Program-made: the position numbers and the translations under genes
The notes under the pieces: generated by a model
Seen by the model: the letters and a program-made list of their open reading frames with translations, nothing else
Told to the model about the DNA's origin: nothing
The model's database searches: none
Source: Acorus gramineus
Taxonomy: Eukaryota > Streptophyta > Magnoliopsida > Acorales > Acoraceae
Reading direction: 5' to 3'
Assembly (NCBI GenBank): GCA_030737835.1
Contig: CM060855.1
Span: 11,379,927-11,443,926, forward strand
Length of the DNA stretch: 64,000 bases
In this document: positions 18,890 through 57,000 of the stretch, in pieces
Layout of the letters: each line of letters starts with the position of its first letter
Numbering within the stretch: the first letter of the stretch is position 1

Positions 18890-19529
18890 TCAGTCAAACC
18901 CAACCGCCGCAAAAGGCGACGGCGCCTTCACCTTCGGCGGCCTCCCGCGGCCCCTCTTGACGACCCCACCGACCACTGCCGGCGCGTCCGCGGGGGGCCT
19001 CCCCCCCTTCTTAGGGGGACGACCCCGGGGCCTCGGCAGCCCACCGGCAGCAGCCTTGGCGGCCGCCGCCGCCGCCGCGGCCACGGGGGCCTTGGGGGGC
19101 CGGCCGCGGGGCCTCGGCGAGGAAACGACGGCGTCGACGGGGAGGGTGGTTTTGGGTTTAGGGGGGCGGCCGCGGCCGCGCTTGGGAGGGGCGTCGGGGC
19201 CGGGGCGGAGGTAGTTGTTCTTGACGAGGAGGAGGTCGCCGGACTCCTTCATGCGGTTGAGGTGGTGGGAGAGGAGGTTGGTGTGGCCGGCGGGGAGGTC
19301 GCCGTAGGTGGACTCTATGTATTTGGAGATGGCGGACTTGTTGGAGCCATTCTGGTCGTTGAGGGCGTCGATTGCTTGGAGGATCATCTGATGATCATCA
19401 TAGATCCATCAACAATCAAACTGAAAATATAGAAACCCTAAAAAACAAAAAAAAAACAGAAGAGATAGAGAATGGTACCTCTGAGTATTGAGGAAGAGAA
19501 GGGGGTTTGTTGACCTCCTCAGTAGCCAT
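18890..19529 (-). CDS. HMGA: HMGA-type chromatin protein (H1/H5 domain plus four AT-hooks)
   Basis: Exon 1 is 19529-19479 (MATEEVNKPPSLPQYSE). The intron is 19478-19388 (GTACC..CAG, phase 0). Exon 2 is 19387-18890, giving 182 residues. Residues about 13-85 form a linker-histone-like globular domain (QYSEMILQAIDALND, NGSNKSAISKYIESTYGDLP, LLSHHLNRMKESGDLL). The tail has four AT-hooks with the RGRP core: KRGRGRPPK, RPRGRPPK, RPRGRPPKK and KRGRGRPPK, separated by an Ala-rich run and ending AVGFD. Plant HMGA proteins bind the minor groove of AT-rich DNA in the nucleus and act as architectural chromatin factors. The start choice rests on the MATEE.. opening and the splice join, which restores the conserved LPxYxEMI sequence. 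Exon 2 is strikingly GC-rich against its AT-rich surroundings. Confidence 0.93.
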
Positions 19530-20092: not shown

Positions 20093-22349
20093 TTTTCTGT
20101 TTGAATTTGGAATAAACGGTGGAATAGATGGGAATAAAGGATAATAAGAAAAAAAAAAAATGTTTGGGTGAAGAGAATAAGTGGGTATGGCTATACAGGA
20201 TTATGTGAGAATAAATTGATATTTATATTTCAAATCTCTTACCCCCGTTTGGGAAGTGGAATTGCGTTATTCAGCCCTGATAGTTATACTGGGATAAATA
20301 TTAGTGTTTGGCTGCATTTTTTGTTACATTTTTAGTCTATCTGTGTTTGGTTGCATTTTTTGTTATTCTTATTTATTCTTATTGGGAAACGTAAAATGCA
20401 GATTTTTGGTGTTTGGTTGACCTAGAATAAACTGTGGATAAATGGTTGATAAGGGATGGATAGGGAGTTATTATTTTTAAAATGTCAACTTTGCCCCTGG
20501 AATATATTTTTATGTTTGGTGTAATTGATGAATATAAATAATTAAATCTGGACGGTCCATCTTATGTAATATTTTATGGTGGGCCTTTATATATTTTTTA
20601 CAACTAATCTATGTATTCATTGGTGATTCCAAATGCTTTATGATGATTCTAATTATCCTATATCAATTTAATTATATTTACTCAATGACTTGATCATAAA
20701 TAGAAAAATATATATAAATCATAGGTTGTCCATAAAATTGATAGATTTTATTACACAAGTAACATTGCCAGGCGTGTTGTTGTACCAAATAACACTAGCA
20801 TTCTTATATAAGCCTTCATTTAATTTAATATTGAAATATAAGTTTTTGTTTGGTTAACGTTGATAGATATATATCAAGAACATGATGAATGAAATTAAAT
20901 CTGAACCGTCCATCTTATGTAATATTTTATGGTAGACATTCAAATATGTTTTACAATTACATTCCAATTATGGGTTATGAGTTAATTAAATTTACCCAAT
21001 CAGTTGGCCATAAATAGTAATAAATTAAAATATTATTCTTATCTAATAAAATGACTTTGAATTATTAACAAATTATATTGCCAATATGGCATTCACATTC
21101 TAAATAAGAAATGAGTATAAAAAAGTAACAAACTCATTCCAAACAATCAGTTACTACTGCTAAACTTACATTATATACCTCGGTCATCTATTTCACCAAA
21201 AATTTCATGTTACTTACTTAATGAAATACTACTGAAGGTTGATCAACTTTAATAGTAGGTTAGCTATGAAAGGAATTTTGACCCTACACCACAAATCTCA
21301 TTAACCATATGAATTCCCAAAATAAGCATGAAATTTATTACACAAATAACAAGTTAAGCATAAAATCATTGCACATACCATACGGTGGGGTAGCAAATGA
21401 GATTATTTACCTCGGTTTGGATCTGCGATGAGGTGGATCCACTTCGTCCGAATGCTTCGCCGCCTCCCCCCACTGCCGCGCAAATGCCGATCGTCGCACG
21501 CTTGGTCGTCGTACAACCGGACGCCGCCCTTCACGAGACGGACATGGTGAAGAAACACAAAAACAGTCGGTAGGGTTTTTTGTTTTCAGAGGAGAAGCAG
21601 TGAAGAAGATGAAGTCGGTGGGGAAGATGAAGTCGGTGGGGAAGAAGAAGAGAATTGAAAGTGGGTTTTTGTGTTTCTTTTGATGGGACTAGGAGTACAC
21701 GTGGCAGCATCTGGTTATTTTCAGTGAGGATTTAGGACAGTCAGGATGAACTGGTCCACTGATTAGATGGTGGAAATATAAGATGGGTATATCATTGGAG
21801 TTTGTTAAAGTAAGTGAGAGAATTTTTTTGTAATGATGGTGAGGGGTATTTTTATTCTCAGGAATAGATAAGCCCTGATAAGCTATTCTCCATTTTATTA
21901 GAATTGTTATCAGGCCTTATGCTAGTTTATCCAGGCATTGCTATCGGGGTTTATCCGCCCCAAACAAACAGCGAATAAGGGCTATTCTACTGTTATTCTC
22001 CCCTATTCATTGTTTATGTCAGTTGGCAAACGGGGGGTTATAGAATTGTGTTATTCATCCAATGGTATAAAGAAAATCACTTATCAAATCACATGTCATC
22101 GTATTAAGTCAACTGTCATCACCTCTTATACATCAATGGAGCCCACACGTCAAATCAACTTTTGACACCTTATGCACATTTTATTTTTCATCAACCAAAT
22201 AACTCAACCTTTATTATTATGTTTCCCAATGAGAATAACAAAAAAACACAACCAAACAAAAAATCACGTATTCAATTGATAAAGTTATTTATTCCTGTAA
22301 CAATAGGTATAAAGCTCTAAATAGCTTATGTCTCTATCCAAACGGGTAC
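20093..22349. mobile_element. Tourist-like element split by a second insertion
   Basis: The outer element comprises about 20093-20241 and 22038-22349. The left part (TCTGTTTGAATTTGGAAT.., AGAGAATAAGTGGGTATGGC) and right part (CATCACCTCTTATACATCAA.., CTCTATCCAAACGGGTAC) match the intact copy at 47957-48410. TTA follows the right end. It lies about 560 bases upstream of the HMGA start codon. Confidence 0.7.
20242..22037. mobile_element. 1.8-kb PIF/Harbinger-like element nested in a Tourist copy
   Basis: Ends are CCCCCGTTTGGG (left) and CCCCCCGTTTGCC (right, reverse complement), with TTA at 20239-20241 and 22038-22040. The interior is mostly AT-rich but holds a GC-rich patch at about 21416-21560 followed by GAAGATGAAGTCGGTGGGGA repeats at about 21600-21640. 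No transposase frame is visible. The GC patch could be residual element coding sequence or captured host DNA. Confidence 0.7.
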
Positions 22350-47775: not shown

Positions 47776-48709
47776 CCCATTTGGATGGGAGAATATAGGG
47801 TGGAATAGGGGGGATAAAGAGGAATAAAGGTAAAAAAAGTTGTTTGGGTGGGTGGTATAAAGGGGGTATAGCTATACAGAATTAGATGAGAATAAGTTAA
47901 TATTTATAAGCAGAATTAGATGAGAATAAGCTGATATTTGTATTCCAAGTCTCTTAGGGGCTGTTTGGCTAGAGGAATAGGGGTGGAATAGGGGTGGATT
48001 AGGGGGGAATAAGGCAAAAAAGGCATTTGGGTAGAGGGAATAAAGGGGAATAGCTATGTGGAATTAGGAGAGAATAAGTTGGTATTTGTATTCCAAGTCT
48101 ACCCATGGAATTGTGTTATTCCTCTACGGGAATAAGGGGATCCACCTATCAAATCATATGTCATCACATCAAATCATCTGTCATCACCTCTTATACATCA
48201 ATGGAGCCCACATATCAAATAAACTTTTTATACCTTATTTACATCTTTTTCTTCATCAACCAAACACTCCAACCTTTATTATTACGTTTCTGAATGAAAA
48301 TAACTGAAAACACAACCAAACACAAAATCTCTTATTCCATTGATAAAGTCAACAATTATTAGAATAGGTATAAACTCTAGAATAGCTTATGTCTTTATTC
48401 AAACGGGCTCTTATGGAATTATATTATTCTTTCACTAAGAGGACCCACCTATTAAATCATATGTCATCACATTAAATCACATGTTATTATCTCTTATACA
48501 TCAATGAGGCCCATATATCAAATCAATCTTTTACACATTATTTACATTTTATTCTTTATCAACCAAACACTCCAACCTTTATTATGTTTTCTAATTTGAA
48601 TAACTAAAAATATAACCAATCAAAAAATCACTTATTCCATTGATAAAATCTATAATCTCTAGAGTATGTATAAATTCCAAAATAAATTAAGCCTCTATCG
48701 AAACGGGCA
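47776..48709. mobile_element. Tourist-like element carrying a second copy of its own family
   Basis: The outer parts are 47776-47956 (CCCATTTGGATGGGAGAATA.., ending ..GTCTCTTA) and 48411 to about 48709 (TTATGGAATTATATTATTC.., ending ATCGAAACGGGC). TTA precedes the left end at 47773-47775. The left part contains a small repeat, GCAGAATTAGATGAGAATAA. Confidence 0.75.
47957..48410. mobile_element. 454-bp intact Tourist-like MITE nested in a sibling copy
   Basis: The left end is GGGGCTGTTTGGCTAG; the right end in reverse complement is GAGCCCGTTTGAATAAAG. TTA duplications lie at 47954-47956 and 48411-48413. It is about 80% alike by eye to the outer element and to the split copy at 20093-22349. 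No transposase frame. Confidence 0.85.
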
Positions 48710-53284: not shown

Positions 53285-54003
53285 AAGAATTTAAGGGCAG
53301 TTTGACAAAATCAAAATAAAATGGAATACATTCGCAAAAATCTCTTCTCTCTCAACCCACAGCGCGCCCCCCCCCCCGTCCCGTCAAAATCACGGCCCGC
53401 GGGCCAATCCAGCATGCGCGAAAACAAAAATCCACGGCTCCATCAAAACACCGAGATTCCCTCTCAATTTTCTCGTTGGTCTCTCTTACCCCCATCACGA
53501 CTGCGACGTCTTCACAAACCAAAGCTCATCAACATTTCTTTTCTTTTCTTTCTTTCTTTCTTTCTTTTTATAAAAAGCAAAGCTAAACTAAAAAAATAAT
53601 AATTCATTCATTATCATCCAAGTACTACTATTTTTTTATATATATTATTAATTTATGACCCACAAAAAGCAGAACTTCAAATAAAATAAAATAAAAACTA
53701 CAAAAAGACTCCCTCCATTGGTACAAGTTGAAGCCATAGATGATGAAGGTGAACAGAAGCAGCGGAACCTCCGAAGAAGAAGCCGATCACGATGAGGCAT
53801 TCAATGAGTATATCTGAAGTTGGATTTCGTGAGATTTTCCAATTTTTTTCTTTCTGATTCGATAACTGTAAATAATTTCGGGAAACTAACCTCTTTAAAG
53901 CATCAAATCTGAGCAGATTTTGTTGTAACTCTATTAGGTTTTCTTTGTATTTCTTTTTTGGTTTCTGTTGTTGTTGTACTTGTATGAGTGGGGGTTTTTG
54001 TCT
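53285..54003 (+). promoter_or_regulatory. FAB1C upstream region and 5' leader
   Basis: It contains a C-rich patch at 53363-53402, CT-rich leader text, a (CTTT)n run at about 53541-53567, and TATATATTATTAATTTATG at about 53638. The transcription start cannot be fixed. Just upstream of the ATG the DNA is T-rich with TTGTTGTTGTACTTGTATGA. Confidence 0.4.
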
Positions 54004-57000
54004 ATGGGAGTACCCGATCGGCCGATTCTGGATCTGATAAAGATAGTCCGGTCTTGGATTTCGTTCTCTTCTAGCGTTTTGTGGGATACGTGGACGATGT
54101 CGACGACGACGACGACGACGTCGGCGGCTGGCGGCGGCGGTGAGGCGTGCATCGAGTGCCGATCGATCCTGCACGCGCAGGACGACCGTCGCTGCCGGAG
54201 CTGCGGGAGGTTGTTCTGCCGGAACTGCGTGCGGCGCGTCGGGACGGCCGAGTCCGGGTCGGCGCCGACGCTGTGTAAGTTCTGCTTCAGGGCCATTAAT
54301 GGTGGTTGTGAGGCGGATGCGTTGATTCGTAGTAGCTGTCCCGTGTCTCCGATGTACAGTAGTAGTCACGGTGTCGCCCGTTTTATTGAAGGGCAGCTGG
54401 GGTTTTCCCCTCGCTCGGCGTTGTCTCCTCTTCGTTGCTTGTATAGCAGGTATCTTTTTCTGTTCATATTTTTTTTTTTCACAATCATGCTTGTGGTGTA
54501 TTTGGGATGAAATTTTGTACGTTTAATGTTTTTAGGATATGGTATCCATCTCGTTCAGGTTGTTTGTCACATTCTTTGCAATTTAAAAAATTAGTGCGAG
54601 TTGCCTGTGTATCTCTTACTAGTAATCAAAATGCATCTAAAACTCAGTTTATTTTATCACACTTATCACCTATCAGTTATGAACGTATACTTACTGTATT
54701 AAACAAAATCATTGGTGAATATTTTCTGTACACAAATTTTGTGACTATGGTTAAGGGTATAAAATTGATGATTTCTCTGCATGATGGTGGTAAATCTTTC
54801 CCTTAAAAAAAAAGATGGTGGTAACTCTTTCATGATCTTGTCAAGTGCTAAAACCTGCTAAATAGATGGCTGTTATAAGGTGTGATATGCGTTTTTGTAT
54901 TAATCTATTAAACTCTTGTTGGGGGCTGTCCAGTTTTGTAGGTTGTTTGGTGGAATTTTAATCTATTTACCTCATAATGTAGAAACTTAATTGCCTGTCA
55001 ATTGTAGCGGATAAGCATTTTCGGACAAGTTGTCTCATTGTTCGTTAATCAGGGTGTGTGATTCTGGCTTACCTTTCCTCCGGCTTAACATACATGTACC
55101 TCACACATTGATGTAGAAATATTTTATGTTCATTCTTTTACATCCACAACCATTTCTTATTCTGTCCCTGATGTGGCTGATTTGGTTGTTGGCTGTTTGG
55201 TGTACCATTCATGAATGCAGGAGCGATGAAGTTGACACTGAGGACACCGAGAAGCATTTCTTTAGCCCGTTAAGTGAATACTTACAAGATAGTTCTGATG
55301 TAGAATCATGTAGTATTAGCACCACACAAGATTTTTACAGTTTTAAGTCAGTGGAGTCCAGTCCATTTGACAGCCCAAGTAGGTCTGACTATTCTCCTCA
55401 GCAGGAGCAAGGGGAGAGTCCTAATAGGCCCCCTCAAGTTTCTCTCTTGGACCAAGAATCATCAGGCATTTTTAGAAGGCCTGCAAAAGCCATTGAGGAG
55501 TTAAGGAGCTCCAATGATTGCACTGGTGGTTTATATATTACGCAAAACCAAACCCGAGATGTTATACAGCCAAAGCCATTGGATTTTGAAAACAATGGTC
55601 CCATTTGGTTTCCTCCACCCCCCGAAGACGAAAGGGATGATGTGGAGGATAGTTTTTTGGAATATGATGATGAGGATGATGAAATTGGAAACTCAGGCAC
55701 AATGTTCTCAGCTAGTAGCTTCAATACTGAAGCTTTCCCTGTGAAGGAGAAGCAGAATGATGCACAAAAAGAACCTTTGAGAGCTGCTGTGCGTGGGCAT
55801 TTTAGGGCTCTAGTATCACAGCTGTTGAAGGGCGAACGCATTAATTGCGGAGGGGAGGATGGAGGAGAAGGCTGGTTAGATATAATATCTTCACTAGCAT
55901 GGCAATCTGCAAATTTTGTAAAACCTGATACTAGCAAAGGAGGGAGCATGGATCCAGGCAATTATGTAAAGGTGAAGTGTGTATCATCCGGAAAACCAAG
56001 CGATAGGTATGGATAGACTGAATAAAGTTCTCTTGCAGATCCTCTATGGCAGTTAGCCAAATAAACTAACTGGAGGTTTTTTTTTTATATTCGACAGCAC
56101 CTTTGTTAAGGGCATAGTTTGCACAAAAAATGTAAAGCACAAGCGAATGTTGTCACAACACAAGAATCCTAGATTACTTATATTGGGAGGAGCTCTGGAG
56201 TTCCAAAGGGTGTCGAATAAGTTGGCATCTATTAATACTGTACTTGCGCAGGTTGTTTATGTCCTTTGCGTATTAAAAATTTTGCACCCTTCATTTATAA
56301 AATGATCATATTAACATCTCAAGCTTTTCCAAATACAGGAGATTGAACACCTGAAGATGGCCGTTGCAAAGGTAGAGGCACATCGACCCAATGTTCTATT
56401 AGTGGAAAAAAGTGTATCTTCATATGCTCAAGAATATCTGTTGGAAAAGGAAATATCTTTGGTGTTGAATGTCAAAAGGCCATTGTTGGAGCGAATCGCC
56501 AAGTGTACAGGTGCACATATAGCTCAATCGATTGAGAGCATTGCCTCCGCTAGGCTGGGGCAATGTGAAATTTTCCGGTTGGAGAAAGTGTCTGAAAGCT
56601 TTTATGGTGACCCACTGAAGAAGTCCAAGAAAACTTTGATGTATTTCGAAGGTTGCCCCAGACGCTTAGGTTGCACGGTATTGTTTTATCTACTTTTTTT
56701 GCTATTTATTAATTTTCTTGTTATGTGGATGCCAATTTGTTGTCCTGTAATCAGATCAAATATCATGTGTTTAGGCTGATCTCGGAGTTGAGTTATTCAA
56801 CTCATGTCAGTACCAGTGAAAATATATATATTTTGTTGTTTATGTAAGTGATAATGTATCATTTTCTAGGGCTATGACTAGCTTTCATTTGGGATAATAC
56901 AAGGTTTAGGTACCGTGTCATGAACCGCACCACGAAGTTGATATCTTGAAGTGGTTAACCACTTATATAATGAATGAATTTTGATCCAATTCTAGTGGTG

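What the first reader, a model, noticed from the sequence alone, without database searches (positions are those of the whole stretch)
20239..22040. Two independent Tourist-type insertions at the same internal TTA of a related element
The 1796-bp element at 20242-22037 and the 454-bp element at 47957-48410 both sit in the homologous site of a Tourist-like host copy: AAxTCTCTTA on the left and TTATxGAATT on the right. Two different inserts at one exact position suggest a preferred internal target, possibly protecting the rest of the genome. The uninterrupted inner copy reads AAGTCTACCCATGGAATT at this place, which could be sequence drift or an excision scar.
Basis: partly seen in the sequence, partly recalled or inferred. 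Interest (0 to 1): 0.72.

Follow-up and report, generated by a model that had tools for sequence, protein, structure and literature searches.

The report
Nested transposons sharing one insertion site
Two small plant DNA transposons each landed at the same spot inside older related elements, most likely because that spot resembles the short target sequence their transposase prefers, a known habit of this transposon superfamily.

Summary
The 1796-bp insert (20242-22037) and the 454-bp insert (47957-48410) are each flanked by TTA/TTA and sit at the homologous position (consensus 143|149) of two diverged copies of one Tourist-like (PIF/Harbinger-type) MITE family, "F". The same genome (398.6 Mb) holds at least three more insertions at this position, five in all, from two element families. 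Equal-format junction searches found 4 nested places at this site, 3 separate events at site 376, and none at sites 160, 235 and 290; other sites were not searched this way. The likely cause is target preference. A matrix learned from 52 F insertions elsewhere favours C at -3 and -1 of TTA/TAA (palindromically G at +1 and +3), the 9-bp extent published for PIF and mPing, and ranks the site 1st of 28 TTA/TAA sites in one host and 1st of 41 in the other. The uninterrupted inner copy is not a scar: its sequence is one substitution from its subfamily consensus, and one relative has it exactly. No protective role is supported: 71 of 82 sampled F insertions lie outside F and A-type elements at the sensitivity used. 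Nested MITEs and the "safe haven" idea are already in print. A tidy example of a known kind.

The parts
20109..20241 (+). left half of host A (F-family MITE, consensus 18-143) ending in TTA
   Evidence: blastn to F consensus
20239..20241 (.). target site duplication TTA, left copy, insert A
20242..22037 (.). insert A, 1796-bp A-type element, ends CCCCCGTTTGG / CCCCCCGTTTGC, no ORF of 120 aa or more
22038..22040 (.). target site duplication TTA, right copy, insert A
22040..22346 (+). right half of host A (F consensus 149-445, 83% identity)
47780..47956 (+). left half of host B (F family, consensus 8-143, with an internal partial duplication spaced 34 bp) ending in TTA
47954..47956 (.). target site duplication TTA, left copy, insert B
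47957..48410 (+). insert B, 454-bp F-family MITE, ends GGGGCTGTTTGG / GAGCCCGTTTGA
48095..48112 (+). the same site inside insert B, uninterrupted: AAGTCTACCCATGGAATT (subfamily state, no TTA)
48411..48413 (.). target site duplication TTA, right copy, insert B
48413..48708 (+). right half of host B (F consensus 149-446, 81% identity)

Best explanation
The hosts are old copies of a high-copy Tourist-like MITE family (F). F and the related A-type elements are moved in trans by a PIF/Harbinger-type transposase (inferred). It duplicates three bases, mostly TTA or TAA, and prefers C at -3 and -1 and, by symmetry, G at +1 and +3. Position 143 of F has a C-T-C-nnn-T-(G/A)-G context in some subfamilies, and in a few copies the middle is TTA (CTCTTATGG, CTCTTATAG), a very good target. 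Different elements therefore hit the same base repeatedly and independently; no special function of the site is needed. Shown: structure, recurrence, target preference, rank of the site. Inferred: the transposase and that its preference is the cause.
For: Structure and duplications. Five events at the site: A, B, L046 (A-type; TCA/CCA at the junctions), L069 (F, reversed, ATA), L070 (F, reversed, TTA). Equal-format right-junction searches: site 143, 4 of 4 places nested; site 376, 5 of 6 nested, being L001, L071 and L072-L074, the last three copies of one event, the sixth an uninterrupted host; site 235, 0 of 2 nested, both uninterrupted hosts; sites 290 and 160, no place. In 52 non-nested insertions C at -3 is 21/52 and C at -1 is 20/52, against 11.8% and 14.1% at 779 background TTA/TAA sites (Fisher 6e-7, 3e-5). 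Held-out test: 13 of 29 loci had a clean TTA/TAA pair and their true site is at the median in the top 2.4% of local TTA/TAA sites (KS p 3e-7). Rank of the site in its own joined host: A 1/28, B 1/41, L069 1/44, L046 1/21, L070 3/40. The best-scoring flank context of all 435 trinucleotides of the F consensus is at 337, and an A-type element sits exactly there, duplicating ATT.
Against: Site 376 has three separate events but scores only moderately (6th of 25 in L001, 2nd of 10 in the partial host L071); it is the consensus state, so exposure may explain it, which was not tested. L070 ranks 3rd, not 1st. Two of 13 held-out sites score poorly (top 34% and 88%), and 16 of 29 held-out loci had no clean TTA/TAA pair. 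The five hosts are homologous, so their ranks are not independent tests. Insertions at other internal places occur in the unguided sample: L163 near 85, L205 near 400, L141 near 425. No transposase was sought.
Confidence: 0.85

Rival explanations
1. Coincidence: nested insertions are spread evenly over TTA/TAA sites and two happened to coincide.
For: With 28-41 TTA/TAA sites per host a coincidence of two has a few per cent chance; nested insertions at other places in F exist.
Against: Three further events at the same position, and none at sites 160, 235 and 290 with equal searches.
Confidence: 0.05
2. The site has gone through repeated insertion and excision, and the inner copy's CTACCCA is an excision scar.
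For: The bases at the site vary more than their immediate flanks in a mixed sample of 57 copies.
Against: About half of that sample was chosen by a pattern that contains the site, so the variation is biased. Close relatives of the inner copy share its state. PIF/Harbinger excision is usually perfect where analysed (PMC2836001, passages).
Confidence: 0.05
3. Safe haven: the site draws insertions away from the rest of the genome.
For: 11 of 82 sampled F insertions are inside or abutting F or A-type elements; whether this exceeds the families' share of the genome was not measured. The idea is in print (PMC3695323, passages, citing Rothnie 1990 and Jiang and Wessler 2001).
Against: 71 of 82 are elsewhere; position 143 takes 1 of those 82 (L171, the same event as L070).
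Confidence: 0.04
4. The interrupted hosts are copies of one composite element or of one duplicated region.
For: L072-L074 at site 376 are such duplicates: the pieces left of their inserts, outer flank included, are 96-99% identical.
Against: The inserts at site 143 differ in family or orientation, and the outer flanks of A and B do not match.
Confidence: 0.01

Closest known systems
PIF/Harbinger elements and Tourist MITEs with a 9-bp extended target (maize PIF/mPIF, rice mPing)
   Same: 3-bp duplication, mostly TTA/TAA, and a preference reaching 3 bp to each side (PMC2836001 and PMC6327408, passages); the matrix here has the same extent.
   Different: The preference here is graded, tolerates ATA and ATT (and probably TCA), and C is also raised at -2 (17/52), where the maize consensus CWCTTAGWG, recalled and not found in print here, has A or T.
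Nested MITEs / self-insertions of maize and rice (Jiang and Wessler 2001)
   Same: MITEs inserted into members of their own family; proposed limiting or safe-haven role (known only as cited in PMC3695323, passages).
   Different: The original paper is not held, so whether it reports one recurrent internal position could not be checked.
Carrot DcSto Stowaway MITEs
   Same: Two different elements at exactly the same position in alternative alleles, and nested MITEs including a Tourist-like one (PMC3695323, passages).
   Different: Stowaway (TA) elements; the shared position is a locus, not an internal site of a host element.

Membership tests
Tourist-like MITE (PIF/Harbinger) | 3-bp TTA/TAA target site duplication | tested here: met
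   Both window inserts TTA/TTA. Of 29 further loci 13 have a clean TTA/TAA pair and 16 do not; by eye some of these have TCA, TGA or TTG pairs.
Tourist-like MITE (PIF/Harbinger) | terminal inverted repeats | tested here: met
   A: CCCCCGTTTGG / CCCCCCGTTTGC; B: GGGGCTGTTTGG / GAGCCCGTTTGA; short and imperfect.
Tourist-like MITE (PIF/Harbinger) | short, non-coding, high copy number | tested here: met
   Insert B: 454 bp, 3136 first-look candidates of which 40 were scored. Insert A is 1796 bp, long for a MITE, and its copy number was not measured; no ORF of 120 aa or more in either.
Tourist-like MITE (PIF/Harbinger) | extended target preference around the duplication | tested here: met
   for F insertions; not measured separately for A-type elements.
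Tourist-like MITE (PIF/Harbinger) | mobilised by a PIF/Harbinger transposase and ORF1 protein | not tested
   No autonomous partner was sought.

The most novel reading that the evidence does not exclude
Beyond the target motif, transposase bound to internal sequence tethers insertion here: the 15 bases to the right of the site in the F consensus (GGAATTGTGTTATTC) repeat, with one difference, a stretch in the left end of the A element (GGAATTGCGTTATTC), so F copies could act as internal landing pads.
Probability: 0.06. Interest if true: 0.5.

Novelty: new member of a known kind. Interest (0 to 1): 0.25.

Why it matters
Recurrent nesting at one base can be predicted from an ordinary target preference learned from insertions elsewhere, without invoking protection or excision scars. 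The nested copies are a natural target-preference assay for a PIF/Harbinger-type family whose transposase is still unidentified here.

Tried and rejected
Excision scar at the inner copy: rejected. Excess variability at 143-149: not used as evidence, because about half of the 57 copies were chosen by a pattern that includes the site. CTCTTA alone as the whole explanation: rejected, since site 235 (CCTCTTATAC) has it and no nested insertion was found there, while the hosts of L069, L046 and L072 do not read CTCTTA. Left-junction searches gave 36 and 41 places, mostly not in F hosts by their letters, and were replaced by right-junction searches; two of their places were fetched (L131, L132) and showed no match to the library. 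A test of occupancy: of 275 matches, 100 were listed; 30 were read, 54 and 16 judged uninterrupted. Three are interrupted by an element (A, B, L046). Five (L106, L110, L112, L113, L115) do not read clearly as the family downstream and were counted as not interrupted. By hand count ten of the 100 have CTCTTA and two of these are interrupted, against one of 90 others (Fisher 0.026): a weak test, since A and B were known beforehand. Of 115 matches, 15 were not listed. Literature: six searches, with passages read in eight papers; the key 2001 paper is not held.

Full report
What is there. The window is G000:C9:11379927-11443926 of a 398.6-Mb genome. Insert A (20242-22037, 1796 bp) and insert B (47957-48410, 454 bp) are each flanked by TTA on both sides. 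Insert B belongs to a high-copy MITE family, here called F: 3136 candidates at first look, 40 scored, 47 matches. The two interrupted hosts are older F copies, 75-83% identical to the F consensus over their main stretches. In both, the left half ends at consensus 143 and the right half begins at 149. The host halves are 76-77% identical to each other and the outer flanks do not match (best E 0.034), so the events are independent. Insert A belongs to a different but related family (A-type): part of its left end matches the F 3' region in reverse.

The inner copy. The 30 best F copies give the consensus AAGTCCACCCATGGAATT here. Of 29 copies other than insert B the script read the site in 26; 14 have AAGTCCACCCATGG exactly, none has TTA followed by TGG or TAG, and L028 has exactly the inner copy's variant. 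The inner copy is thus in the ordinary state of its subfamily, one substitution from the consensus. It is not a scar.

Recurrence. A right-junction pattern (element end, TTA, host sequence right of the site; up to 3 mismatches) gives 4 places in the genome and none for the reversed control: A, B, L069 and L070. L069 is an F element in reverse with ATA duplicated. L070, read with the upstream pieces L133 and L214, is an F host interrupted at the site by a reversed F, which itself holds two A-type elements. A fifth event, L046, an A-type insert with TCA/CCA at the junctions, came from the left-side search. The same right-junction format gave 6 places at site 376: L001, L071 and L072-L074 are nested, and one is an uninterrupted host. 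L072-L074 have F on both sides of the insert, and the pieces to the left, outer flank included, are 96-99% identical, so they are one event duplicated. Site 235 gave 2 places, both uninterrupted hosts. Sites 290 and 160 gave none. Sites 143 and 376 are thus recurrent and the other three are not; the remaining TTA/TAA sites of F were not tested in this way.

Unguided sample. From 108 F insertions found by their left end (100 listed), I fetched the left flank of 82; the other 18 listed lie in loci fetched earlier. Against a small library of F and A-type sequences 14 of 82 match. I read five as inside an F-like host: L171 at site 143 (the same event as L070), L185 near 376, L205 near 400, L163 near 85, and L141 near 425, the last inferred because the match stops 19 bases short of the junction. 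Six abut another element's end, most of them sharing its TTA/TAA (L134, L143, L192, L154, L176, L178). Three are short weak matches and were not counted. So 71 of 82 are elsewhere at this sensitivity.

Target preference. From the 82 flanks I dropped the 11 nested or abutting ones, repeated flanks and those without TTA/TAA, leaving 52. C at -3 (21/52) and at -1 (20/52) is far above 779 background TTA/TAA sites (11.8% and 14.1%; Fisher 6e-7 and 3e-5); C at -2 is raised less (17/52). By symmetry this is C-N-C-TTA-G-N-G. The matrix was tested on 29 other loci: 16 lacked a clean TTA/TAA pair and were dropped; for 13 the true site lies at the median in the top 2.4% of TTA/TAA sites nearby (KS p 3e-7), two being poor (34% and 88%). 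In the joined empty hosts the site ranks 1st of 28 (A) and 1st of 41 (B), 1st of 44 in L069 and 1st of 21 in L046 by its flanks (in L046 the duplication is assumed to be TCA), and 3rd of 40 in L070. The hosts are homologous, so these are not five independent tests. A separate test: the best flank context of all 435 trinucleotides in the F consensus is at 337, and an A-type element sits exactly there in L133/L070, duplicating ATT; L046 has a second A-type end close to the same place. Against this, site 376 scores only moderately (6th of 25 in L001).

Literature. A preference that extends 3 bp to each side of the duplication is published for maize PIF and rice mPing, as is usually perfect excision (PMC2836001, passages; the mPIF/PIF 9-bp statement also in PMC6327408, passages). 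MITE insertion into members of the same family, and the safe-haven idea, are credited to earlier work in PMC3695323 (passages). A review gives TWA as the Tourist preference (PMC12595863, passages). I could not read Jiang and Wessler 2001, so I do not claim that one recurrent internal position is unreported.

Verdict. The best-supported cause is ordinary target preference acting on a site whose flanks fit it, with TTA there in a minority of copies. Protection and excision scar are not supported.

Noticed in passing
L214 + L133 + L070 (G000:C4:529000-534700): Multi-level nest: F host, reversed F at site 143, and inside that two A-type elements at F positions about 421 and 337, the latter with an ATT duplication.
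   Followed up: yes
L134, L143, L192, L154, L176, L178: F insertions abutting the end of another A-type or F element, most with a single TTA/TAA between them: the duplicated target of one insertion may be reused by the next (one junction seen).
   Followed up: partly
L072-L074 and L215-L217 (G000:C2, about 6.15, 6.37 and 6.52 Mb): One A-type insertion at F site 376 occurs three times within 0.4 Mb with 96-99% identical pieces to its left: local segmental duplication.
   Followed up: partly
window 20540-20606 and 20893-20959; 21420-21650: Insert A contains a 67-nt direct repeat (87%) and a stretch with an 18-bp tandem repeat that looks GC-rich by eye, possibly captured sequence.
   Followed up: no
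window 47860-47942: Host B's left half contains a partial duplication spaced 34 bp just before the insertion site.
   Followed up: no
window 53968-56779 and 18890-19387: Reading frames with a sub-threshold FYVE match and a TCP1/Cpn60 match (FAB1/PIKfyve-like, name from recall), and a linker-histone protein.
   Followed up: partly
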